Shown piece by piece: positions 1,068 through 59,211 of a DNA stretch of 64,000 bases. Under the pieces are notes generated by a model, which saw only the letters and a list, made by a program, of their open reading frames with translations, did no database searches and had not been told where the DNA came from. This stretch comes from Actinopolyspora halophila DSM 43834 (GTDB lineage: Bacteria; Actinomycetota; Actinomycetes; Mycobacteriales; Pseudonocardiaceae): the NCBI RefSeq assembly GCF_000371785.1, contig NZ_AQUI01000002.1, positions 4,823,352 to 4,887,351 of the forward strand, written 5' to 3'. The position numbers were made by a program, and so were the translations under genes. Numbering within the stretch: position 1 is the stretch's first letter; each line of letters opens with the position of its first letter.

Positions 1068-4000
1068 ATGGACAACCAGGTGCACCAGCAGAATCAGCCG
1101 TTCCACGGGAGCGATCACTCCTCCGGACCACATCCCGAGCACTCCGCGGGCACCGGCAACAGCTGGTTCAACAACGCGGAGGAGGCAGCACCCGCACGGA
1201 CCGGGCCGTCCAGTCCTCCCGCCCCCGAAAACCGACCCGCTCCCGAAAGTCGGTCCGCTCCCGAGGAGCAGACCCCCGAGCAGCGCTACGCCGACGCACT
1301 GGCCGCGCTCAACCACATGATGGCCACCTTCGACTTCAAAGCGCTGTCCTGGGTGACCGAGGTGCTGCGTGCCACGGCGGGCGCGCTGCCGGAGACCGAC
1401 CCCTCCCGACCGAGCGTGCTCAACAACCTGGGCAGCGCCGCCCAGCTCGCCCATCTGGCCTCCGGTGACCTGGCCCATCTCGAGGACGCCGTCACCTACT
1501 ACCGCTCGGCAGCGGACTCCGCGCGCCGTGACGACCCCGACGGGGTGCTCTACCTGTGCAACCTCGCACTGGCGCGCACGGACTGCGCCAATCGCAAGGG
1601 CTCCGTCGAACAGGCCGCCGACGCCGTGCAGGCCGCCAAGCGTGCCACGGAGCGCCTGGACCGGATCCCCGCGACCGGCGGTGACACCGAGGGCAGCGGA
1701 AGGCACCGCACCACGGCGCTGGTGCGCCTGGGCAACGCGCTCAAGTCGCACGCGCGGCTGGCCTCCGACAACGACTCGGACGACGAGTCCGTCGACGTTT
1801 TCCGCGCGGCGCTGCGCAAAACGGTCGGAGGCGACGGCGGACAGCGCGGTGGGGACCCGGAACTGCTGATCAGCCTGGGCACGGCTCTGCTGCGCAGGCA
1901 CGAGCGGAACGCGGAGCCCAGCGACCTCGACGAGGGGATCAAGTACCTGAGCAACGGGGTGGAGTCCCTGCCGGACGGACAGCACCGGAGCTCCATGCTG
2001 CTGCGCTTCGCGGAGGCGCTGCGCCTGCGCTACCGCCAACGCGGTGACCTGACCGACCTGCAGTCGGCCGTCGACGAACTGTTCGGCATGCTCGACGCCC
2101 TGGACCCGGGCAACCCGCTGCTGGGCAAGCTGGTCTGGAACCTCGCTTCGGCCACCGTGGAACACCTGGACAGCAGCGGGGAGCACGGGAACCTCTACCG
2201 GGCTCTCCGGGCGATCAGCCCGAAGATGCGCGATCTCGCGGGCGACGACCCGAACCGCGCCGTGGCACTCGCGGGCTACGGGGCGCTCGCCCGCCGCCAC
2301 TATCTGCACGGCGGCAACACGGCGGCACTGGACACGGCCGTGGCCGCGGGCGAGGCGGCGACGGAGGCCGAAGCCCCGGCCCCGAAGCAGTGCGCGGTGC
2401 TGAACTCGTTGGCTTCCACGCTCATAACCAGGTTCGAGCGCGCGAACGAGCAGGAGGACCTCGACCGCGCGACCCAAACGGCACAGCAGGCGCTGAACGC
2501 CTCCGAGGTACGTACCGCCCCGCAGTACACCGCCTACGCCCAGCTGGGGGTGGTCGCGGTCCACAGGCACCGAATCAGCGGCCAGAACGAGGACCTGGAA
2601 ACGGCCATCGAGATGTTCGACCGGGCGCTGATCGCCATGCCCGATTCGGCTCCGGAACGGGTGTCGGTGTCCACACACCTCGGTCGCGCGCTGCAGACGC
2701 TCTACCGCCGCACGGGAAGGCGGAAACTCTATCGCTGGGCACGCAGGACGCTGACCGAAGCGGCGAGCCTTCCCACCGGCCCCGCCGACCAGCGGCTCAG
2801 GGCCGCCAACCTGTGCGGAAGGCTCGCGGCTCACGCGCACCGCTGGTCGGAAGCCCTCGAGTCGTTCGCGCTCGCGGTGGAACTGCTCCCGCTGGTCACC
2901 CAGGGCAAGCGGGCAGTGGCCACCCCCAGCGTGCAGCGTCGCTGGGCCCACGTGACCGCCGACGCGGCTGCGTGCGCGCTGGAGGTCGGCAAACCGGAGC
3001 GGGCCGTCGAACTGCTGGAGCACGGTCGTGCCGCGCTGTTCTCCGAGCTGCTCCCCGGGGGTGGGGAACTCGGCAGGCTGAACCACTCCCACCCGGAGCT
3101 GGCCACCGACGCCGTGCGCCTGCGCAGGCTGTTGGACCGGCCGAACGAGGAGCCCATCCTGGGCGGGCCGGACATCGTCGAGGACGTGGAACGGCGACGC
3201 TGGTTGGCCGAGACCTGGGACGACCTCCTGAACGAGATCCACGCCGAACCCGGGCACGAGCGGACCATGGCTCCCCTGCCCTTCTCCAGGCTGGCCGAGG
3301 CCACCGATCAGGGGGCGGTGGTGCTGATCAACCTGAGCAAGTACCGCTCGGACGCCATCGTCGTCTTCGGCGGACGTGCCCTGGTGGTCGGGTTGCCCTC
3401 GGCTTCACCCGAACTGGCGGAAAAGCACGCCGAGACGGTGCTGAGTGCCACTCAGCAGGGACAACGCAGCGCGGAGAACGAGAACGCCCTTTCCGAGGCC
3501 CTGGACTGGCTGTGGCGGAACGTCACCCGTCCCGTGCTCGACCGCATGGGCTACACCCGCACTCCCGCGCAGGGGGTGCGCTGGCCACGGCTCTGGTGGA
3601 GTCCGCAGGGCGCGGCCGCCTTCCTGCCGCTCCACGCGGCCACCTCGGCCGAGGGGGATTCCGCGCTGGACAGGGTCATCTCCTCCTACACCCCGGGGCT
3701 GCGCACCCTGCTGGACACCGAACAGCGGGAAGAGCTCGACAACGGCCCGGGACTGATCGTGGGACCGCCCGATCAGCACGCCCCCGAACACCCGACCAGG
3801 CTCCCGGCACGCCACTGGCCGTCGGCACCCGTGCTGTCCAGCGGGGAGCACACCGCCGAGGACGTGCTCACGACGCTGGATCAGTACCACTGGCTGCACA
3901 TCTGCGAACCCAGCACCCAGAACGCCGCGCAACCCGCGGCGAGTCTGGTGCTCGACCGGGAGGACCGCGAACGGTCCCTGGGACTGCTCGACCTGGGGCA

Positions 4001-5301: not shown

Positions 5302-5317
5302 GCTCACGAGCGTCCGC

Positions 5318-5442
5318 GGTTTCTCCCGCGTCGCTCTCGCGAGCAAGGCCCGACTCGGCGTAGCCGGCTGCTCGATGTCGGGCCTCGGCGGAGCGGGGGC
5401 CCGCGGGAGGCCCCGCTCCGCCGACCCCGCGCGAACCGAGCC
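5318..5442 (+). repeat. dispersed intergenic repeat A, diverged copy 1
   Basis: This is related to the sequences at 35399-35520 and 57699-57772. Shared blocks include CGATGTCGGGCCT and GCGAACCGAGCC, and the GAGCCCGCGAGAGG block appears as a diverged GGCCCGCGGGAGG. It lies between the convergent ADP-ribosylglycohydrolase and Mce-associated genes. Confidence 0.6.
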
Positions 5443-5454
5443 GGCAGGGCTTCG

Positions 5455-6516
5455 CTACTGGACGAACTGCGACATGTTGGAGATCTTCCACTCCCCGTCG
5501 CTCTTCTCGGCCTGCACCGTCAACTGGGCGGGATACACGCCGCCGTCGTCGCTCTTGGTGCTCGTGGCTTCCTGGTTCACGAACAGCAGGACCTCGGCAC
5601 GATCCCCCTCGAGGAGGGTCACCCCCGACCTGGTGACGGTGCTCGTGAGCTTCATCTTCTGCTCGGGCGCCTGCTCACGCACCGTTTTGAACATTTTGTC
5701 GTACTGATCCACGGCCTTTCCCACCAGCAAGTTCTCTGCCGCCTCCTCGGTTTTGCCCACATTGGAGTAGTCGTAGGAGAACAGCTTTTCCACCGCGCTG
5801 CCGACCCGTCCCTTGACCTCGCTGGTGGCGGCCTCGTCGACGAGGGCCGCGTTCGCGGAGGGACCTTCGTGCCGCAGCGCGTGGGCGGCCTCGTGGAACC
5901 AGTACGCGAGCCCGCCGAAGCCGAGGGCGAGCACCAACAGCACCGCCGTCAGCGCGACCGGTTTGTCGCCGGGAGCGAACCCGGACCGGCTCTTGGAGCC
6001 CGCGCCGCGTTTCCGCGCGCGCTTTCTCCGCCCACCAGGGGATTCGGCGGGAGAAGCGGCGGTTTCCCACTGCTCGGGCGTACCGGAGTCCTGCCCCCGC
6101 GCGGATTCGTCGCGGGACTCGCCGATCTCGTCCCGCCGTTCGGAGTCCCGCTCGGAATCCCCGGAAACGGTGTTCGTCTCCTCCACGGTGTCGGCTCCCG
6201 CGGTGCCCTCCCCCGAAGCGTCGTCATCCTCCGAAGCGGAATCGGCCGCGGTCGCGGTGTCCGTCGAGTTCTCCACGGTGGACACCGCGGGCTCGACGTC
6301 GTCCACCTCCCCGGTTTCCGCGATCGTCCCCTCGGACTCCTCCCCGACGGCCGTGTTCGTGTCCTGCCGGGCGCTCTCCTCGGTGGTCGTGCCGTCCACC
6401 CGCGGGGACTCGCCCTCCGCGACGGTGTTCGTGCGGTTCCTCGTTCCGGCGACACGCGGCTTGCGCGCGGGGGAACCGCCCTGGCGGCGGCGTGGAGTAC
6501 TGCGGGAAACGCTCAC
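5455..6516 (-). CDS. Mce-associated membrane protein with long acidic N-terminal region
   Basis: A 353-residue protein. Residues about 1-160 are disordered, rich in Glu/Ser/Thr and bounded by Arg-rich stretches. One membrane helix follows (VALTAVLLVLALGFGGLAYW, about 178-197). The outer domain (about 215-353) ends in DGEWKISNMSQFV, as in Mce-associated (Mas/VirB8-like) proteins. These accompany mce operons and are thought to stabilise or assist the MCE importer. The GTG start has GGAAGGAG upstream. It is the last gene of the mce operon, 45 bases after the other Mas gene, and its 3' end faces a convergent gene across a repeat. The long acidic cytoplasmic region is unusual for the family. Confidence 0.8.
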   Translation of the reverse strand: MSVSRSTPRRRQGGSPARKPRVAGTRNRTNTVAEGESPRVDGTTTEESARQDTNTAVGEESEGTIAETGEVDDVEPAVSTVENSTDTATAADSASEDDDASGEGTAGADTVEETNTVSGDSERDSERRDEIGESRDESARGQDSGTPEQWETAASPAESPGGRRKRARKRGAGSKSRSGFAPGDKPVALTAVLLVLALGFGGLAYWFHEAAHALRHEGPSANAALVDEAATSEVKGRVGSAVEKLFSYDYSNVGKTEEAAENLLVGKAVDQYDKMFKTVREQAPEQKMKLTSTVTRSGVTLLEGDRAEVLLFVNQEATSTKSDDGGVYPAQLTVQAEKSDGEWKISNMSQFVQ

Positions 6517-10777: not shown

Positions 10778-11754
10778 GGCAGACATCCCTCCTGGTTGAC
10801 CGGGCCGACCGCGGGTGGGAGCAACCCGCAGAGGTAGACGTCGAACCAGCGCCCGTTTCCGAGCACGTTGGAGAACAACCTGGTGAACGGGGCCATCCGT
10901 TCGATGCTCTTGCCCAGGTTCTCCTGGTTGTCCCGCAGTAGCTTGGTGACCTGGTCCAGCTGTTCCAGCGCGGGTTGGAGCTGTTCCTCGTTGTCCTCGA
11001 CCAGTCCGGTCAACTGCCTGGACAGTTCCGTCACCCCGTCGAGCAGCGACTTGATCGCGTCCCTGCGCTGTCTCAGCTCCCGCAACAACCGGTTGCTGTC
11101 CCGCAGGAGCTTCTCGATCTCGGTGTTGCGCTCGGCCAGCGTTCCCGCGACCCTGTTGGTCTTGCCGAGCAGCTCCTTCAGTTGCTCGTCGCGTTCGGAG
11201 ATGGTGTTGGACAGCCTGGACAGACCCTGCAGCGTGCCGCGCATCTCCTCCTTCGTCCCGGAGAAGGTCTCCGACAGCGTCCGGAAGCTCTCGGCCAGCT
11301 GCTCGGTGTCGACCTCGCCGACCGTGTCGGACAGCTGCTCGAAGGTCTCGATCACGTCGTAGGGCGACATGGTGCGCTGCAGCGGGATCGGTTCCGAGCG
11401 GTTCTGCTCCTGCTCGCCGCGCGTGTCCAGGGCCAGGTACTTCTTGCCGAGCAACGTGCCGACCTTGATCGCCACGTGCGTGCGGTCGCCCACCCAGGCG
11501 TCCTCGACGTCGAAGGTGACCTTCACGTGCCCGCTCTCCAGTTCGACCCCGGTGACCGAACCGACCTGGACACCGGCTATCCGCACGGTGTCGCCCTCGG
11601 CCAGCCCGCCCGCCTCGCTGAAGTTGGCCGTGTAGGTGGTTCCCGAGACGAACGGAAGGCTCTTGTAGTTCATCGCGAGCAGGAATCCGAGGGTCAGCAC
11701 CAACAACCCCGCCACGCCGATCTTGAGTGGATCCCGCTTCTGAAAGGACTTCAT
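10774..11754 (-). CDS. mceC: MCE family protein MceC
   Basis: A 326-residue MCE subunit. The N-terminal helix (about 11-31) is followed by the MCE domain (VRIAGVQVGSVTGVELESG, then TLLGKKYLALDTRG). A coiled-coil-like region (about 125-290) comes next, then a short tail containing the conserved DVYLCGLLPP-type Cys motif shared with MceB. The start at 11754 forms an ATGA overlap with the mceB stop and has GAGG 9 bases upstream. A GTG nine bases further upstream is the alternative. Confidence 0.93.
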   Translation of the reverse strand: MKSFQKRDPLKIGVAGLLVLTLGFLLAMNYKSLPFVSGTTYTANFSEAGGLAEGDTVRIAGVQVGSVTGVELESGHVKVTFDVEDAWVGDRTHVAIKVGTLLGKKYLALDTRGEQEQNRSEPIPLQRTMSPYDVIETFEQLSDTVGEVDTEQLAESFRTLSETFSGTKEEMRGTLQGLSRLSNTISERDEQLKELLGKTNRVAGTLAERNTEIEKLLRDSNRLLRELRQRRDAIKSLLDGVTELSRQLTGLVEDNEEQLQPALEQLDQVTKLLRDNQENLGKSIERMAPFTRLFSNVLGNGRWFDVYLCGLLPPAVGPVNQEGCLP

Positions 11755-22319: not shown

Positions 22320-22437
22320 CACGACCACGGTGGTCCACCCGGCGAGCGCCTCAGCAGCCCCCCGGAGGCGCACGCGCGGGGGTCCCCGGCGAGGCTCACG
22401 CCGGGGACCCCCGCGGCATCATCCGTCCGCGCCACGC

Positions 22438-30706: not shown

Positions 30707-30744
30707 AAAAGACCGGACCCGTCCCCGCGGGGACGGGTCCGGTC
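30707..30744. terminator. strong hairpin, terminator of rplA and possibly of the convergent glycosyltransferase
   Basis: GACCGGACCCGTCCCC (30711-30726) pairs with GGGGACGGGTCCGGTC (30729-30744), a perfect 16-base stem with a two-base centre. On the minus strand it is followed by TTTT (30707-30710), so it best serves rplA. Confidence 0.85.
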
Positions 30745-30773
30745 TCATCCGGAACTAGAGCCGAGGAAAGGGC

Positions 30774-35157: not shown

Positions 35158-35176
35158 CTGGTCGGGTAGCCGGCAC

Positions 35177-35264
35177 GTGAGTCGGCGCCTTGCCAGCGTT
35201 GGAGGGCACCTCGAGTAGCGGCTACGCCACGGTGCCCTGCCGCCTTGCAATGCATCCGACTCAC
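35177..35264. repeat. nested inverted repeats (88 bases)
   Basis: The outer arms are GTGAGTCGG (35177-35185) and CCGACTCAC (35256-35264). The inner arms are AGGGCACC (35203-35210) and GGTGCCCT (35231-35238). The apex is GTAGC-G-GCTAC (35215-35225). Three concentric perfect stems imply a folded RNA or a small palindromic element. It belongs to no known class that I recognise. Confidence 0.65.
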
Positions 35265-35339
35265 GCACCGGAGCTTCTCGTCCTGCCCAGGCTCCAAGCG
35301 CCCGCGTCGGAGCGAAGCCTTCTGCAAAAAGTTCTACTG

Positions 35340-35373
35340 GGGCTTCTTCGGCACGCCAGCGCCGAAGAAGCCC
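35340..35373. terminator. 13-base-pair perfect hairpin, probable bidirectional terminator
   Basis: GGGCTTCTTCGGC (35340-35352) pairs exactly with GCCGAAGAAGCCC (35361-35373) around an eight-base loop. There is no T-tract on either side. It lies between the convergent aspC and hadB genes. Confidence 0.6.
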
Positions 35374-35398
35374 TGCCTAGCAACTCGCACCGCCGCGG

Positions 35399-35520
35399 GT
35401 TCTCTCGTGGTGCTCTCGCGAGGAAGGCCCGACGTTGTGTAGGCCGCTACCCGATGTCGGGCCTGGCCGGAGCGAGAGCCCGCGAGAGGTTCCGCCACCC
35501 GCACCGCCACGCAAACCGCA
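35399..35520 (+). repeat. dispersed intergenic repeat A, copy 2
   Basis: Contains CCCGATGTCGGGCCTGGCC and the exact 20-base core AGCCCGCGAGAGGTTCCGCC at 35477-35496, shared with 57727-57746 and, inverted, 53820-53839. Its 5' part (TGCTCTCGCGAGGAAGGCCC) resembles the copy at 5318-5442. It is again between convergent genes. Confidence 0.75.
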
Positions 35521-35533
35521 CCGCCGAAAGAGC

Positions 35534-35959
35534 TCAAGAAAGGCGCACGAGGGCGTAGGCACCCCCGAGCACACCCTGCCCGGCGCACTTCGCGGTGAGG
35601 TTGAGCTTGGCCGTGCCCTCCTCCTCGTCGACGGAGGCGACCTTTCCGGACAGCTCCACCCGCGCGCCGTTCTCGTCGTCCGGCACCACGACCGGGCGAG
35701 TGAACCGGACACCGTGCTCGACGATCCGCCCCGGATCGCCCAGCCAGTCGGTGACCAGCCGAGTGGCGAGCGCCATGGTGAGCATTCCGTGGGCGATCAC
35801 GTCGGGCAGTCCCACCTCCTGCGCGAAGGCCCCGCTGTAGTGGATCGGGTTGAAGTCCCCGGAAGCTCCCGCGTAGCGCACCAGGTCACCCCTGGTGACC
35901 GAAATGCTCAGCTCCGGCAGCTGGTCACCCTTGCTCACCTGCGACAGTGTCGGCGTCAT
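35534..35959 (-). CDS. hadB: (3R)-hydroxyacyl-ACP dehydratase subunit HadB (MaoC hot-dog fold)
   Basis: A 141-residue catalytic subunit. The hydratase motif YAGASGDFNPIHYSG supplies Asp35 and His40. It works with HadA as a heterodimer that dehydrates 3-hydroxyacyl-ACP in type II fatty acid elongation. It overlaps hadA by ATGA. The hadC gene found next in mycobacteria is not present here, and the spacer after hadB contains repeats. Confidence 0.92.
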   Translation of the reverse strand: MTPTLSQVSKGDQLPELSISVTRGDLVRYAGASGDFNPIHYSGAFAQEVGLPDVIAHGMLTMALATRLVTDWLGDPGRIVEHGVRFTRPVVVPDDENGARVELSGKVASVDEEEGTAKLNLTAKCAGQGVLGGAYALVRLS

Positions 35960-53804: not shown

Positions 53805-53862
53805 CTCGCCGGCGCGGACGGCGGAACCTCTCGCGGGCTCGTGAGCGGGTGCCCCGACGTCG
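53805..53862 (-). repeat. dispersed intergenic repeat A, inverted partial copy
   Basis: Contains the 20-base core AGCCCGCGAGAGGTTCCGCC on the minus strand (53820-53839), preceded on that strand by GACGTCGGGG like the GATGTCGGGC of the other copies. It lies between the convergent rmlA and htpX genes. Confidence 0.72.
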
Positions 53863-53912
53863 AGCAGCGGCGCTCACCGGCCCCGCGAGGCACCCCGCAT
53901 CGGCGCACAGGC

Positions 53913-54785
53913 TCAGTGCGAGGGCAGCCTGCGGCCGGCCATCCCTTCCAGGCGCTGCACCCGGTCCGAGATCGGCGGATGGGTGGAGAACAACCGCGCC
54001 ATGCGCTCCCCCGGGCGGAACGGGTTGGCGATCATCAGGTGGGACTCGCTGACCAGCCCCGGCTCGGCCGCGAGCGGTGCCTGCTTGGTCCCGTGCTCCA
54101 GCTTGCGCAGCGCCGAGGCCAGGCCGAGCGGGTCCCCGGTGAGCTCCGCGCCCGAGGAGTCGGCCTCGTACTCCCGGGAACGGCTCACCGCCATCTGGAT
54201 CACGGCGGCCGCTATCGGACCGAGCAGGGACACGAGCAACATCATGGCCAGACTCGGCCGATCCTCGTCGTCGCCCCCGAAGTGCGCGAAGAGCATGCCG
54301 AAGTTGGCCAGGAAGGTCACCGCGCTGGCCAGGGCCCCGGCCACGCTGGAGATCAGGATGTCGCGGTTGTACACGTGCGAGAGCTCGTGACCGAGCACGG
54401 CACGCAGCTCGCGCTCGTCCAGCAGTTCCAGGATGCCCGCCGTCGCGCACACGGCCGCGTTGCGCGGGTTGCGTCCGGTGGCGAACGCGTTGGGCGCCTT
54501 CGTCGGGCTGATGTACAAAGTGGGCATGGGCTGCTTGGCGGCCGTGGCCAGCTCCCGGACGATGCGGTACATCCCCGGCTGCTCCGCCTCCGAGACCGGG
54601 CGGGCCCGCATGGAACGCAGCGCGAGGTTGGCCGAGTTGAAATAGGCGTAACCGTTCACGCCGAGGGCGATCAACAACGCCACGACCATCCCGGTTCGAC
54701 CGAACAGCGCTCCGATCAGCACGATGAGCGCGCTCATGCCTCCCAGCAAGAGCGCCGTCTTGACTCCGTTCCACTGGCTGTGCAC
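53913..54785 (-). CDS. htpX: membrane zinc metalloprotease HtpX
   Basis: A 290-residue protease that degrades damaged membrane proteins. Two N-terminal helices (about 10-50) precede the zinc motif HELSH at 133-137, then two more hydrophobic segments and the third-ligand motif [15 protein letters not shown]. It ends in [16 protein letters not shown]. The GTG at 54785 has GGGAG upstream, and an upstream extension is rejected. The nearby YajQ and polyprenyl synthase genes recall the htpX neighbourhood of mycobacteria. Confidence 0.95.
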
Positions 54786-55228
54786 TGTGCTCCCGCCTTC
54801 GTCCGGACTCCGAACCGTTCGGTGAGTACCCGCACCGGAACCGGGGAGCGTGGCCGCGAACCACACCCGACACGGGTCGGTGGGGACCGTCCACGGCCCC
54901 CGACTCCGCAGACACGTCCGAAAGTGGTGTCTGGTTCCGGGCACCTCGCGAAGAACTCACCTGGTCAACGTCGTACGCCTTCCCCTAGTTCCGCACTCCC
55001 CCACGACGAACACGTCACATGTGACCACCGAAGATCATGAACACGGCCACCACCGATCACCTTCGTCTTCCCGGCAAACTAAACTACTGATCAGTTAGAG
55101 GTTCGTCTCGTAATGACCCCGTAGAACCGCACGGACTTCTCCGACGACCGTGCTCACGATTGACGAACGGGCTCCTGTGTACTGCCGCCGAACACCGGAC
55201 GGTGACCGGCGGCGGAGAGGATTTTCGG
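54786..55228. other. 443-base intergenic region between divergent htpX and YceI genes
   Basis: Contains the palindrome near 55086 and presumably both promoters. No further gene is supported. Confidence 0.5.
55080..55102. promoter_or_regulatory. palindrome, candidate TetR-type operator
   Basis: CTACTGATCAGTTAG contains the perfect palindrome ACTGATCAGT (55086-55095) inside a near-symmetric AACT...AGTT frame. Such short AT-rich dyads are common TetR/MarR sites. It lies about 130 bases before the YceI gene. No adjacent regulator is present. Confidence 0.3.
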
Positions 55229-56122
55229 ATGGTCTTGTCCAAACTGCGTCAACGTGGTTTCACCCGCGCCAGGAAACCCGGCAGGGAGGGTGCGAGCAAC
55301 GCGCTGCCCCCGACGCCTCTCGACGGCGGGACATTGAGTTGCCAGGTGCACGACGAGGCTGATCGTCCACTCCCCGAAGCGACCGTCACCGTGGTCAACC
55401 GACTCAACCAGCAGGCCGCCGTCGGCACCACCGACGGATACGGCTTCTTCCTCGCCACGGTTCCCCCGGGCCAGCACAAAGTCTCCATCACCGCGGGCGG
55501 CTACCAGCGGTTGGGCACGCGGGTGGAGATCCGCACCAACCGGCACACCTCCATCGGTGCCGTGCGGCTGGCGCGCGACCCCGAGAGCGCCGCCCTGCCC
55601 GAACCGGGTGTGTGGACCTTCGACCCGGACCACACCGAGATACGGTTCATCGCACAGCACATCGGCATGTCGAAGGTGCACGGGGCCTTTCGCGACCTCG
55701 AGGGACGCATCATGGTGCGTGAGCCCTTCGAGGAGTCGAAGGTCGAGGTCGCCATAGACGCCTCGAGCATCGACACCGGAGTGCGCATGCGCGACGAGCA
55801 CCTGCGCTCGGCGGACTTCCTGGACGTAGCCAATCATCCGAAGCTGTACTTCCGCAGCGACAGGATCACCCAGCTACGCGGTGACAAGTGGCAGATCAGC
55901 GGCAACCTCACGCTGCGCGGGAACTCCAGCCCGGTCCAGCTGGATACCACCTATCTCGGTACCAGGAGCTGGAACGGCACCCGCACGGCCTGCTACTGCA
56001 CCACCGAACTGCGGCGGGAGGACTTCGCGGTCAACTGGCAGCAGCTGTTGAACAAGGGGATCGGCGTGGTCGGCCCCACCGTTCAGGTGAAGCTGGACAT
56101 CCAGGCCGTGCTGGAGGAGTGA
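55229..56122 (+). CDS. YceI family protein with N-terminal carboxypeptidase-regulatory-like domain
   Basis: A 297-residue protein. A basic N-terminus is followed by a beta-sandwich domain (about 35-110: LSCQVHDEADRPLPEATVTV, TTDGYGFFLATVPPGQHKVS). The YceI lipocalin-like domain (about 124-297) has WTFDPDHTEIRFIAQHIGMS, VEVAIDASSIDTGVRMRDEH and FLDVANHPKLYFRSDRI. YceI proteins bind isoprenoid-like lipids. The ATG at 55229 has GAGAGG upstream, with a TTG at 55160 as the alternative. No signal peptide is visible. Confidence 0.88.
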   Translation: MVLSKLRQRGFTRARKPGREGASNALPPTPLDGGTLSCQVHDEADRPLPEATVTVVNRLNQQAAVGTTDGYGFFLATVPPGQHKVSITAGGYQRLGTRVEIRTNRHTSIGAVRLARDPESAALPEPGVWTFDPDHTEIRFIAQHIGMSKVHGAFRDLEGRIMVREPFEESKVEVAIDASSIDTGVRMRDEHLRSADFLDVANHPKLYFRSDRITQLRGDKWQISGNLTLRGNSSPVQLDTTYLGTRSWNGTRTACYCTTELRREDFAVNWQQLLNKGIGVVGPTVQVKLDIQAVLEE

Positions 56123-56265
56123 GCGGCGCGCCCGCGTCGTCGCCCCCGGGGCAGCGCCCCGGGTCGGCACGTCGCGGGGCGGCGAAGCCGCACCACGCGT
56201 CACCGCCCGCTCTCTCGGTGCCACCGGCACGGTGCTCGTCTCGGGACGCCCGCACGGCCCCGAGT

Positions 56266-57138
56266 TCACTCACCGTGCAATTCCATTGTGCAGCACTTGG
56301 GACCACCGCCGGATTTGCGCAGTTCCGAGACGTCGGTCAGCACCGGCTCGTAGCCCCGTCGTTCCAAGCTGCGCGCCAGCCCGGTCGCCTCGCTGGGCAG
56401 CACCACGTGCTCGCCGTCGGACACCCCGTTCAACCCGAGGCACTCGGCATCGGCGGCATCGGCGACGACGGCGTCGGGGAAAAGCCTGCGCAACACCCGC
56501 TGGGACCCCGCGGAGAAGGCCTCCGGATAGTAGGCCACCTGGGGACGCGGGCCCTTGCGCAGCACGAACAGCGCCGTGTCCAGGTGGTAGTAGCGGGGAT
56601 CGGTCAGTCCGAGCGAGACCACCGGCACACCGAGCACCTCCTGCGCCTCGGAGTGAGCCCCCGGGTCCGTCCGGAAACCGCTGCCCGCGAGCAGCAGCTG
56701 GCCCGTCCAGGCGAAGTCCCCCTCGGCCTCGTTGATGCTGGAGGGCATAACCAGGTCGCGGTACCCCTCGGTGGAGAACCAGCGACGGAAGTGCTCCGCC
56801 TCGGGAGCTCGCTCATCGGAGCGGAAACGGGCCCCGAGCACCTTCCCCTCGATGACGGTGGCCGAGTTCGCGGAGAACACCATGTCCGGCAGACCGGGCT
56901 GGGGCGGAACGGTCTCGACCGTGTGCCCCAGGCTCAGGTAGATGTCCTTCAGCGCACGCCACTGGGTCATCGCCAGCTCGGTGTCCACGGGCGTGTTCGG
57001 ATCCATCCAGGGGTTTATGGAGTACTCCACCGTGAAGTGCTCGGGTGGGCACATCACGTAATGGCGCCGCGTGGCGACATTGGCGTCGTCCTCGGGGCGG
57101 GGGACGGTGTTGGGCGCAACGGCAGTGGGCACCGACAT
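56266..57138 (-). CDS. ddaH: N-dimethylarginine dimethylaminohydrolase-like protein
   Basis: A 290-residue member of the amidinotransferase/DDAH superfamily, which hydrolyses methylated or free arginine side chains. Conserved elements: PDMVFSANSATVIEGKVLGA, RYYHLDTALFVL (catalytic His), and GGGPKCCTMELHG with the catalytic Cys near 282. The ATG at 57138 is used, and a TTG at 57147 with a better-spaced GAGG is possible. It is divergent from an Lrp-type gene that probably regulates it, the arrangement seen for ddaH in mycobacteria. Confidence 0.9.
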   Translation of the reverse strand: MSVPTAVAPNTVPRPEDDANVATRRHYVMCPPEHFTVEYSINPWMDPNTPVDTELAMTQWRALKDIYLSLGHTVETVPPQPGLPDMVFSANSATVIEGKVLGARFRSDERAPEAEHFRRWFSTEGYRDLVMPSSINEAEGDFAWTGQLLLAGSGFRTDPGAHSEAQEVLGVPVVSLGLTDPRYYHLDTALFVLRKGPRPQVAYYPEAFSAGSQRVLRRLFPDAVVADAADAECLGLNGVSDGEHVVLPSEATGLARSLERRGYEPVLTDVSELRKSGGGPKCCTMELHGE

Positions 57139-57204
57139 GATTCGCAATCTAATCCTCGCCAGTAGCGGTATTCAATGCGTCTTCATTGCGGTGAGTACGG
57201 CAGA

Positions 57205-57654
57205 ATGTTGCACATGGACCCCCTGGATCAGCGAATCGTTTCGCAACTCGTCACGGATGCCCGAGCCAGTTACGCCGAGATCGGCAACGAGGTCGGCCTC
57301 TCCGCCCCAGCCGTGAAAAGACGGGTGGACAAGCTGCTCGACACCGGCATCCTGCAGGGGTTCACGGCCGTGGTGGACCCGGAGGCCCTCGGCTGGGGAA
57401 CCGAGGCCTTCGTGGAGGTGCACTGCCACGGGAACGTGCCTACCGAGAGGCTGCTGGCCGGTCTGGAGCCGCTGCCCGAAGTCGTCCGCGCCTACACCGT
57501 CTCGGGCGAGGCGGACGCGATCGTGCACCTGCGCGCCGCCGACATCCACCACCTGGAGACCGCGTTGGAGCGGTTACGCGCCGTGGAGTTCATCAACAGG
57601 ACCGTCTCCACCGTGGTGCTGTCCCGCCTGCTCGACCGTCCGCCGCAGGCCTGA
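57205..57654 (+). CDS. Lrp/AsnC family transcriptional regulator
   Basis: A 149-residue regulator. The N-terminal winged helix-turn-helix (DPLDQRIVSQLVTDARASYA, VGLSAPAVKRRVDKLLDTGI) is followed by an RAM/ligand-binding domain (about 60-145: EAFVEVHCHGNVPTERLLAG, VVRAYTVSGEADAIVHLRAA). The start could be ATG 57205 or 57214. It is divergent from ddaH and probably senses an amino acid related to arginine. Confidence 0.9.
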   Translation: MLHMDPLDQRIVSQLVTDARASYAEIGNEVGLSAPAVKRRVDKLLDTGILQGFTAVVDPEALGWGTEAFVEVHCHGNVPTERLLAGLEPLPEVVRAYTVSGEADAIVHLRAADIHHLETALERLRAVEFINRTVSTVVLSRLLDRPPQA

Positions 57655-57667
57655 TACCCCCGAAAGC

Positions 57668-57697
57668 GGTGGGACGTCTCACGCGAGACGTCCCACC
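57668..57697. terminator. 13-base-pair perfect hairpin after the Lrp gene
   Basis: GGTGGGACGTCTC (57668-57680) pairs exactly with GAGACGTCCCACC (57685-57697) around ACGC. It stands between the convergent Lrp and Sunset-domain genes, directly before repeat A. There is no T-tract. Confidence 0.65.
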
Positions 57698-57698
57698 A

Positions 57699-57772
57699 CC
57701 CGATGTCGGGCCTGGCCTTCAGCGAGAGCCCGCGAGAGGTTCCGCCACCCACACCGCTCAGCGAACCGAGCC
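57699..57772 (+). repeat. dispersed intergenic repeat A, copy 3
   Basis: Starts with the dyad CCCGATGTCGGG, then CCTGGCC, the exact 20-base core at 57727-57746, and ACCGCTCAGCGAACCGAGCC. It immediately follows the hairpin and ends 3 bases before the stop codon of the opposite gene. Confidence 0.78.
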
Positions 57773-57774
57773 GC

Positions 57775-59211
57775 TCACTCCGATTGGGAGTCCCAGGGTT
57801 CGAACCCCGCCTGCTCGGCATCGGCGGCGTTGCGAAACCAGACCTCGGCGACCACGTGGTCGAAGTACGGCGAGTCGGGGGTGTGGTACTGGCGCGATCC
57901 GAACTGGCCCTTGACCGTGTAGCTCTCGTCCGGCCGTTCCTGGTCGGGAAGTTGCTCGTCCGGGTACCACTCCTGGGGGCTGTCACCGGCAGCGGTCGAG
58001 TTCTCCTCGCCCACCTGTTCGGGAGTCGAACGTCCTCCCAACGTCGGGGAGACGGCGGCGTCCTCCGACGGGTCGAGCACTCTGCCCATCATCACCGGGC
58101 GAGCGTTGGGCGGGGTCCCCGGCCTGTTGGTGTTTCCCGGAACCCGCCTGGGCAGTTCCTCCTCCGCACCGGATTCCTCCGCCGAGCCGACCGCGCCTTC
58201 CTCCGCTGCCCCGCTCGGCTCCGCAGCGCCGTGACCGGGGTCCTCCCCGGCAGCGGGATTCCGCGGCGGAAGCTCGACCCCTTCCCGGTCCGGTTCGATC
58301 CCGGGAGTGGCGAGCGGTTCGAACAACGAACGGAGCCTGCCGGTCAGCTCGCCCTCGGACTCCTCAGGTTCGGACACCGCGAGTGTCTCCGTCGAGTCGT
58401 TGTCCGCAGGTCCCGTCTCCGGAGCGGATTCGGTCCACCGCGGGGTCGCGTCGACTCCGGGGGATTCGTGCTGCGGCTGTTCGACGCTGTCGGTGTCGTA
58501 CATGTCGAAATCCGACGCGGCGAACCACGTGTTCTCCCGGTGCGCCCCCGAGAGCTCGGCTCCCGGGGCCAACTCGGCCGGTGCCGTGGGCGGATCGGAA
58601 CGTTCCTCCGTGTTCACGGAGCTCCAGGAAAGCTCGGGGGTGGTCTCGCGGCCCCGTTCCAGCCGCAGCTCCGCGTCCTCGACGGGGGCTCCGCTCGCCA
58701 CTTCCGGGGTCTCCTGAACGGGCTGCCACTCCGTGGCCGTGGGCTCGTGCTCCTGCTCTACGTGCACCGGTTCGGCACCGGCGTGTTCCGCGGAGAAGGC
58801 CTGGCCACCGAAGTCCCCGGCGGCGACCTCCATCCAGCGTCCACGCCCACCGTCCGGGGACGGCGTGCTCGGCTGCTCGAAGGACGTCTCCTCCGCCGAG
58901 TTCCCTTCCACCTTCCTCTCCGCCGGGCCGGACACGCGGAACGGCCGGTCCCCGGTGGGTCCCGCAACGGCCGCCTCGTCCTCGGAATCCGTGTCCAGCA
59001 GGTCCCACACGGCCGTGTCGGATTCCTCCCCGGAGAAGGCGTCCTCCGCCCTTCCAGCCGGCCCCGTGTCCCGCTCGGCCGCTCGTTGCCGCTCGCGCAG
59101 CTCGGTCAACTGGCGATGGGCGGGGCGGACGAACAGCAGCCAGGTCAGTCCCACACCGCACAGAAAGCCGGCGAAGCTCCACAACCAGACCTGGGTAAAC
59201 AGCCACGTCAC
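57775..59211 (-). CDS. membrane-anchored acidic protein with C-terminal Sunset domain
   Basis: A 478-residue protein. An N-terminal membrane helix (WLWSFAGFLCGVGLTWLLFV, about 9-28) is followed by a basic/helical segment and a 370-residue acidic, Pro/Glu/Ser-rich disordered region that includes LTGRLRSLFEPLATPG. The C-terminus (about 428-478) matches the Sunset-domain pattern: VKGQFGSRQYHTPDSPYFDH, then AEVWFRNAADAEQAGFEPW. Sunset domains may bind ligands at the cell surface. The function is unknown. The GTG start is assumed. Confidence 0.78.
   Translation of the reverse strand: MTWLFTQVWLWSFAGFLCGVGLTWLLFVRPAHRQLTELRERQRAAERDTGPAGRAEDAFSGEESDTAVWDLLDTDSEDEAAVAGPTGDRPFRVSGPAERKVEGNSAEETSFEQPSTPSPDGGRGRWMEVAAGDFGGQAFSAEHAGAEPVHVEQEHEPTATEWQPVQETPEVASGAPVEDAELRLERGRETTPELSWSSVNTEERSDPPTAPAELAPGAELSGAHRENTWFAASDFDMYDTDSVEQPQHESPGVDATPRWTESAPETGPADNDSTETLAVSEPEESEGELTGRLRSLFEPLATPGIEPDREGVELPPRNPAAGEDPGHGAAEPSGAAEEGAVGSAEESGAEEELPRRVPGNTNRPGTPPNARPVMMGRVLDPSEDAAVSPTLGGRSTPEQVGEENSTAAGDSPQEWYPDEQLPDQERPDESYTVKGQFGSRQYHTPDSPYFDHVVAEVWFRNAADAEQAGFEPWDSQSE

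What the first reader, a model, noticed from the sequence alone, without database searches (positions are those of the whole stretch)
53805..57772. A dispersed repeat found only in spacers between convergent genes
Four sites (5318-5442, 35399-35520, 53805-53862 inverted, 57699-57772) share blocks such as GATGTCGGGCCT and, at three of them, an identical 20-base core. All four lie between tail-to-tail gene pairs: ADP-ribosylglycohydrolase/Mas, aspC/hadB, rmlA/htpX, Lrp/Sunset. Two adjoin perfect 13-bp hairpins. This suggests a bidirectional terminator or a REP-like mobile module that survives only downstream of genes.
Basis: seen in the sequence. Interest (0 to 1): 0.7.

Follow-up and report, generated by a model that had tools for sequence, protein, structure and literature searches.

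The report
Mobile hairpin parked at gene ends
In the salt-loving bacterium Actinopolyspora and some relatives, a long DNA hairpin is repeated well over a hundred times, mostly about 37 letters after the end of a gene and pointing the same way, and related species often carry it at different genes.

Summary
The genome belongs to the Actinopolyspora group (Pseudonocardiaceae). The repeat is a ~105-bp hairpin with 141 genome matches (a capped count). Its pairing is kept through compensatory changes (24 of 39 pairs across nine genera), and no Rfam family matched. It is not confined to convergent spacers: of 58 classifiable own copies 23 are convergent, 32 tandem, 3 divergent. The better rule is position: in 46 of 58 (7.5 expected) one defined end lies 15-60 bp behind the stop codon of a gene facing it, most often 37 bp, in fixed orientation. 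21 of 27 copies from eight other genera obey the same rule. Presence differs between relatives: in one 100-kb block 7 gene ends are shared with relative G008, 6 are own-only, 2 G008-only. One congener has two places in all. Hairpins at the same gene end are often different variants or a second type. It stands where ordinary terminator-like stems stand. Best reading: a REP/ERIC-like dispersed hairpin that occupies gene 3' ends in the terminator's place. Termination is inferred and the mover unknown; Y1 (RAYT-family) transposases were not found in two copy-rich genomes. A new variant of a known kind.

The parts
5314..5419 (+). Hairpin copy, type A. Its model 3' end is 38 bp from the stop of the facing gene 5455-6399 (-).
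   Evidence: R2 cmsearch 79.6 bits; stop distance
35167..35273 (-). Hairpin copy, type B: like apical loop, different stem. 34 bp behind the aspC-like stop (35132, +).
   Evidence: R2 41.2 bits; sequence; type B described
35340..35373 (.). Perfect 13-bp short hairpin between the type B and type A copies.
35393..35498 (+). Hairpin copy, type A, near consensus. 36 bp from the hadB-like stop (gene 35534-35959, -).
   Evidence: R2 125.0 bits; MFE -80.5 kcal/mol, z -5.7 for 35390-35525; stop distance
53818..53900 (-). Degenerate type A copy, 37 bp behind the rmlA-like stop (53783, +).
   Evidence: R2 23.3 bits, E 0.044; nhmmer 22.7 bits; 20-mer
57668..57697 (.). Perfect 13-bp terminator-like hairpin behind the Lrp-like stop (57654).
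   Evidence: nearly the same in relative G008
57695..57747 (+). Half copy (model positions 54-105), 27 bp from the stop of gene 57775-59211 (-). The orthologous gene in G008 has the full hairpin.
   Evidence: nhmmer 34.4 bits

Best explanation
This is a dispersed, non-coding hairpin element of Pseudonocardiaceae, about 105 bp plus part-conserved flanks, that lives in the 3' untranslated region of genes. Shown: it is a conserved hairpin kept by compensatory change, most copies sit at a set distance and in a set orientation behind a stop codon, it is present at some orthologous gene ends and absent at others, and different hairpin variants are found at the same gene end in related species. Inferred: it arrives by insertion or by recombination between copies, is tolerated mainly just behind genes, and there takes over the place and probably the task of the ordinary terminator or mRNA 3'-end hairpin. 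In convergent spacers it would serve transcripts from both sides. What spreads it is not identified.
For: Copy number: 141 R2 matches at E<=0.1 at distinct places in the own genome (150 candidates scored, a cap); 115 exact loop motifs against 0 for the reversed pattern. Structure: 13 of 42 pairs with two-sided change within the genome; 24 of 39 over nine genera, 167 cells against 48 in shuffles. Position: 133 of 173 copies lie 23-51 bp from a facing stop; 46 of 58 own and 64 of 85 from congeners fall within 15-60 bp, against 7.5 and 12.5 expected; 21 of 27 in eight other genera. Turnover: own against G008, 7 both, 6 own-only, 2 G008-only, 57 neither; 11 of 33 orthologous pairs have hairpins no more alike than random pairs; at own gene 309899 the own genome has type A and G008 type B behind the same first 15 nt. 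Terminator place: stems of 9 bp or more occur in the first 90 nt at 53 of 241 gene ends without the element (median start 30 nt after the stop) and at 2 of 59 with it; 7 of 61 own copies have such a stem within 150 nt after the hairpin.
Against: There are no transcript data and no U-run. The low count of ordinary stems at occupied ends partly follows from the element filling that space, and the contrast comes from some species only: own 8 of 36 against 0 of 20 and G008 15 of 48 against 0 of 13, but G003 3 of 50 against 0 of 10 and G004 6 of 47 against 2 of 16; G006 gives 21 of 60 with no occupied end. Without G006 it is 32 of 181 against 2 of 59, p = 0.005. 40 of 173 copies are not next to a facing stop. 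Hairpins at orthologous gene ends are on average more alike than random pairs (0.886 against 0.846, p = 5e-4), so part of them is inherited in place. The fold is stronger on the strand opposite the gene's mRNA (56 of 58 copies), which a simple mRNA-terminator reading does not predict. Some gene ends counted as empty hold weak or broken copies, and no target duplication or exact boundary could be read.
Confidence: 0.55

Rival explanations
1. The hairpin is the working part of the strand opposite the gene: it stops or caps antisense transcription that would run into the gene's 3' end, so it is a guard rather than the gene's own terminator.
For: The model strand (antisense to the adjacent gene) folds about 11 kcal/mol better on average, in 56 of 58 own copies and in 28 of 29 model-selected copies (27 of other genera, 2 of G006). 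In the variable outer stem G.U pairs lie on that strand, 43 against 3 A.C over the distinct copies of A2; 20 of 21 informative copies of other genera lean that way, 6 are even. Sequence-selected Actinopolyspora copies show a weaker lean: 43 against 23 over 49 distinct arm pairs, 320 against 181 over 154 copies in a cruder count that also took in model-selected copies of other genera.
Against: The cross-genus copies were found with a model of that strand, which favours G.U there. Part of the energy gap comes from a few fixed positions. Further copies gave 2 against 0 (G022, 4 copies) and 0 against 0 (G125, 9 copies). No antisense transcripts are known here.
Confidence: 0.15
2. A REP/BIME-type element moved by a RAYT (Y1 transposase).
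For: High copy number, palindromic, extragenic, mosaic of variant blocks. Y1 transposases are present in 8 of 10 genus members.
Against: PF01797 finds nothing in G008 and G009, which hold 123 and 125 R2 matches. The unit is about 105 bp, not 20-40 bp.
Confidence: 0.08
3. Copies are spread mainly by homologous exchange (gene conversion) between gene ends that already carry one, not by insertion.
For: Variant blocks are mixed among copies. 11 of 33 orthologous pairs carry unlike hairpins, and types A and B swap at one site.
Against: Many orthologous gene ends show no copy, which exchange alone does not create. Flanking direct repeats that would help exchange were not general.
Confidence: 0.3
4. 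A DNA-level chromosome feature (for example a nucleoid or topoisomerase site) rather than an RNA feature.
For: Only 11 of 141 own matches lie in 1.25-3.75 Mb, the terminus half, against 67 expected. REPs and BIMEs are reported as protein-binding sites (PMC2817692, start of abstract in the listing).
Against: Orientation and set distance to a stop codon tie it to a gene end. The listed G125 matches, a partial list, run over the whole chromosome. Conserved genes may simply cluster near the origin; not tested.
Confidence: 0.1

Closest known systems
REP / BIME (repetitive extragenic palindromes, bacterial interspersed mosaic elements)
   Same: More than 100 copies, palindromic, outside genes, near gene 3' ends, variant blocks combined as a mosaic.
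   Different: About 105-bp rod-like hairpin with conserved internal loops, one main orientation and one preferred distance to a stop codon, no Y1 transposase found in two copy-rich genomes.
ERIC / IRU and other bacterial MITE-like repeats (RUP, NEMIS)
   Same: Size (ERIC is 127 bp), long stem-loop, multiple intergenic copies, mobile-looking, no own enzyme (ERIC as described in PMC2759123, passages seen).
   Different: Enterobacterial or other hosts; no sequence relation tested. Those repeats are reported inside genes too, whereas here 0 of 61 own copies lay in a called gene. A fixed orientation behind a stop was not mentioned in the passages I saw.
Intrinsic transcription terminators
   Same: A strong hairpin in the same place behind the stop codon as ordinary terminator-like stems in the same genomes.
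   Different: No U-run, shared sequence over many unrelated genes, very long stem, fold stronger on the opposite strand.

Membership tests
REP/BIME | Palindromic unit of 20-40 bp | tested here: not met
   Hairpin model has 106 positions; size definition from PMC3733652 (abstract start)
REP/BIME | High copy number and extragenic | tested here: met
   141 matches; 0 of 61 own copies in a called gene
REP/BIME | Mosaic of alternative blocks | tested here: met
   Alternative outer and inner stems combined among 58 copies; types A and B
REP/BIME | RAYT (Y1 transposase) partner in the genome | tested here: not met
   PF01797: 8 of 10 genomes, none in G008 and G009 despite 123 and 125 matches
REP/BIME | Terminal GTAG or CGTC tag | tested here: inconclusive
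   GTAG occurs in the apical stem GTAG-NNNN-CTAC; no terminal tag was seen in the consensus, but none was tested for
ERIC/MITE-like repeat | About 100-170 bp imperfect palindrome in many intergenic places | tested here: met
ERIC/MITE-like repeat | Target-site duplication and precise empty sites | tested here: inconclusive
   Occupied/empty alignments, output cut in part, gave no clean boundary
ERIC/MITE-like repeat | Sequence homology to ERIC | not tested
   No ERIC sequence was compared
Intrinsic terminator | GC-rich hairpin followed by a U-run | tested here: not met
   5 T in 8 nt within 20 nt: 0 of 149 copies on the model strand, 1 of 149 on the gene strand; shuffled 0 and 1
Intrinsic terminator | Transcripts end at it | not testable with these tools
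   No transcript data held
Any Rfam family | Match to a curated covariance model | tested here: not met
   Window at gathering thresholds: four tRNAs only. Ten loci with copies at E<=1: one tRNA and one sub-threshold sul1 at L211:114-163, away from the copy

The most novel reading that the evidence does not exclude
Gene 3' ends in this family serve as docking places for exchangeable hairpin cassettes. The cassette works as RNA of the strand opposite the gene, as a guard against antisense or read-through transcription, and is gained, lost and swapped between gene ends without an own enzyme.
Probability: 0.12. Interest if true: 0.85.

Novelty: new variant of a known kind. Interest (0 to 1): 0.6.

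Why it matters
From general knowledge, dispersed hairpin repeats are best studied in proteobacteria, where a RAYT is the suspected mover. Here position and orientation relative to the stop codon are tight in samples from nine genera, and one species with two places left offers a natural control. That makes two old questions testable: whether such repeats are parasites hiding where they do no harm, or working 3'-end parts, and what moves them.

Tried and rejected
Convergent-only rule: rejected, 32 of 58 own copies are in tandem spacers. RAYT/Y1 partner: rejected by absence in G008 and G009. Flanking direct repeats around the hairpin, suspected from single sites: not general; leader against trailer alignment scores 7.0, shuffled 6.9, p = 0.76, 54 copies. 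First consensus structure from RNAalifold (R1): poor, I think because alternative stems are aligned in different registers; replaced by a named structure. Strand bias of copies by chromosome half (seen): I put it down to gene strand, since orientation follows the gene; not tested separately. Rfam and literature: no match or description found. Paper searches answered were made, over an open-licence library only, so a description elsewhere is not excluded; two searches returned no paper and several others mostly unrelated ones. Empty-site boundaries: inconclusive.
Full report
WHAT IS THERE. The best copy, 35390-35525, is a rod-like hairpin: RNA fold -80.5 kcal/mol against a shuffled mean of -57.4, z -5.7; the 5.3-kb copy is weaker, z -2.1. 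In the own genome (5.35 Mb; window = C2:4823352-4887351) blastn with that copy gave 42 matches with 40 of 291 candidates scored. The motif GAWGTCGGGCCT occurs 42 times against 5 for its reversed control. The genus is Actinopolyspora, judged from a scan of named genomes that leaves out the own record or its nearest: A. righensis, alba, biskrensis, xinjiangensis, mzabensis and mortivallis carry it. The scan also returned 20 stretches of unrelated organisms; none held a profile match.

STRUCTURE. Most of the 58 copies fold into the same rod; a few, such as chimaeras, do not. Within the genome 13 of 42 pairs show changes on both sides, 54 cells against 13 in shuffles, 91.3% of cells paired. Over 32 copies, 27 of them from nine genomes of eight other genera, two of G006 and three of the own genome, 24 of 39 pairs do, 167 cells against 48, 95.4% paired; sliding the partner by one to three columns drops this to 41-49%. 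The outer stem changes sequence freely while pairing stays; the ends (GCGG-GUU-CUC and GAG-GUU-CCGC in the model strand) and, in most, the GTAG-NNNN-CTAC top are kept. Copies combine alternative stems. Rfam gave no match to the element.

POSITION, THE MAIN RESULT. With a codon-based gene caller of my own none of 61 own copies of 60 bits or more lies in a called gene; 23 are convergent, 32 tandem, 3 divergent, 3 at stretch ends. Spacers of 100 bp or more in the window and 19 control stretches are 37 convergent, 99 tandem, 52 divergent; the distributions differ (p = 1.7e-4), mainly through lack of divergent spacers, while convergent against tandem alone gives p = 0.06. The tight rule is another. 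Of 177 copies of 30 bits or more with a complete model end, 173 had a called gene on that side; in 133 of these the model's 3' end lies 23-51 bp from the stop codon of a gene facing it, mode 37 bp; 40 do not fit. Placing each copy at random in its own spacer with random strand predicts 7.5 of 58 (own) and 12.5 of 85 (congeners) within 15-60 bp; observed are 46 and 64, z = 16.0 and 16.7. In tandem spacers 26 of 32 own and 28 of 36 congener copies turn this end to the upstream stop. Two non-fitting copies are interleaved with a tandem pair of tRNA-Met genes, one of them about 80 bp behind a tRNA 3' end. In eight other genera 21 of 27 copies, the best three per genome, obey the rule. Convergent spacers hold two gene ends, and both may carry a hairpin, as in the aspC/hadB spacer.

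A SECOND TYPE. Some weaker R2 hits, about 40-55 bits, are a type B hairpin with a like apical loop but other stems (CGTGAGTCGG...CCGACTCACG), at like distances from stops. Others of that score are the reverse strand of a strong copy.

RANGE AND TURNOVER. R2 matches lie in 10 of 10 genus members; nine have 121-141 (cap 150; not checked for double-strand counting outside the own genome), G006 has 3, which are two places, one counted on both strands. G006's contig has the length of the A. mortivallis DSM 44261 scaffold. The exact loop motif is found 115 times in the own genome, 29 to 115 times in the other eight copy-rich genomes and 2 times in G006, with 0 reversed controls in all ten. In the family 53 of 200 genomes and 13 of 46 genera match at E<=1e-4. 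In the order 16 of 249 match, all 16 of the same family; the answer does not say how many of the 249 lie outside it. Both used stricter filters. In one syntenic 100-kb block the own genome against G008 has 7 shared occupied gene ends, 6 own-only, 2 G008-only, 57 empty in both; against G003 2, 11, 3, 50; G004 2, 11, 5, 48; G006 0, 12, 0, 45; G022 0, 9, 2, 32; G125 2, 6, 2, 34. 'Empty' means no R2 match at E<=0.01 assigned to that stop; some such ends hold broken copies. Hairpins at shared gene ends are often unlike: 11 of 33 orthologous pairs (coding ends 72-97% identical) are at or below 0.84, the random mean being 0.846, though as a whole orthologous pairs are more alike (mean 0.886, p = 5e-4) (one search is an earlier form with six self-pairs). 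At own gene 309899 the own genome has type A and G008 type B behind the same first 15 nt. At the window's own sites G008 has a full hairpin where the own genome keeps half (57.7 kb) and none seen where the own genome has a decayed one (53.8 kb), and G006 has type B at hadB where the own genome has type A.

FUNCTION. Gene ends without the element (spacer of 90 bp or more, five genomes) show a stem of 9 bp or more in the first 90 nt in 53 of 241 cases (shuffled 10 of 300), median start 30 nt after the stop; gene ends with it in 2 of 59 (Fisher p 3e-4; without G006 32 of 181 against 2 of 59, p = 0.005). The contrast is carried by the own genome and G008; G003 and G004 show little. 7 of 61 own and 15 of 90 congener copies have such a stem in the 150 nt after the hairpin (shuffled 2 and 2). 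So the hairpin stands in the terminator's place, and in most copies no other strong short stem was found nearby. That it ends transcription is an inference; no U-run follows (0 and 1 of 149). The puzzle is the strand. The strand opposite the gene folds better in 56 of 58 copies, and in the outer stem G.U pairs lie on that strand, 43 against 3, 20 of 21 informative copies in other genera. That sample was chosen with a model of that strand, which biases it; in copies chosen by sequence alone the lean is 43 against 23 over 49 arm pairs, and thirteen further copies of two genera gave 2 against 0. I leave this open.

MOVER. The Y1 transposase family was not found in G008 and G009, both rich in copies, though it is in 8 of 10 genus members, so a RAYT of that family is not required. 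No clean insertion boundary could be read, and flanking direct repeats are not general.

CHROMOSOME. 11 of 141 own matches lie in 1.25-3.75 Mb (67 expected, p = 9e-25). GC skew of the sampled blocks changes sign near 2.6-2.8 Mb, so I take this for the terminus half. Whether this only mirrors the position of long-resident genes was not tested.

COMPARISON. It works most like REP/BIME and ERIC-type repeats. E. coli REPs can lower translation when within 15 nt of a stop codon, and about 11% of those found by one tool (446 of 4,072) lie so close (PMC12306157, passages); here the preferred distance is about 37 nt. Seen were passages of PMC3733652, PMC12306157 and PMC2759123 and otherwise search listings. 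No description of this repeat was found in the searches named under Tried and rejected.

Noticed in passing
L082 3036-3110 and 3482-3556 (tRNA-Met, -), copies 3297-3402 and 3752-3857 (+): Two tRNA-Met genes alternate with two equal-scoring full hairpin copies 455 bp apart, as if a tRNA-plus-hairpin unit had been duplicated.
   Followed up: partly
   Followed up: partly
own genome C2:1.25-3.75 Mb: Strong depletion of the element in the terminus half of the chromosome (11 of 141).
   Followed up: partly
G004 stretches L261-L265 and several congener loci (e.g. L172, L179, L192): Short repeated palindromes such as CGATTTCGCGAGAAATCG stand in 3' spacers, in places in several copies; they look like a separate REP-like family.
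   Followed up: no
window 22375-22415 and 30710-30745: Long perfect hairpins (16-17 bp stems) 22 bp behind one stop codon and 28 and 51 bp behind two others, apparently ordinary terminators, in the place the repeat takes elsewhere.
   Followed up: no
L075 about 10880-10960 (behind own gene 309899): A second unit where the hairpin seems to be deleted between its two ends (TTGGCGGAACC-A-GCGGCGGTGCC).
   Followed up: no
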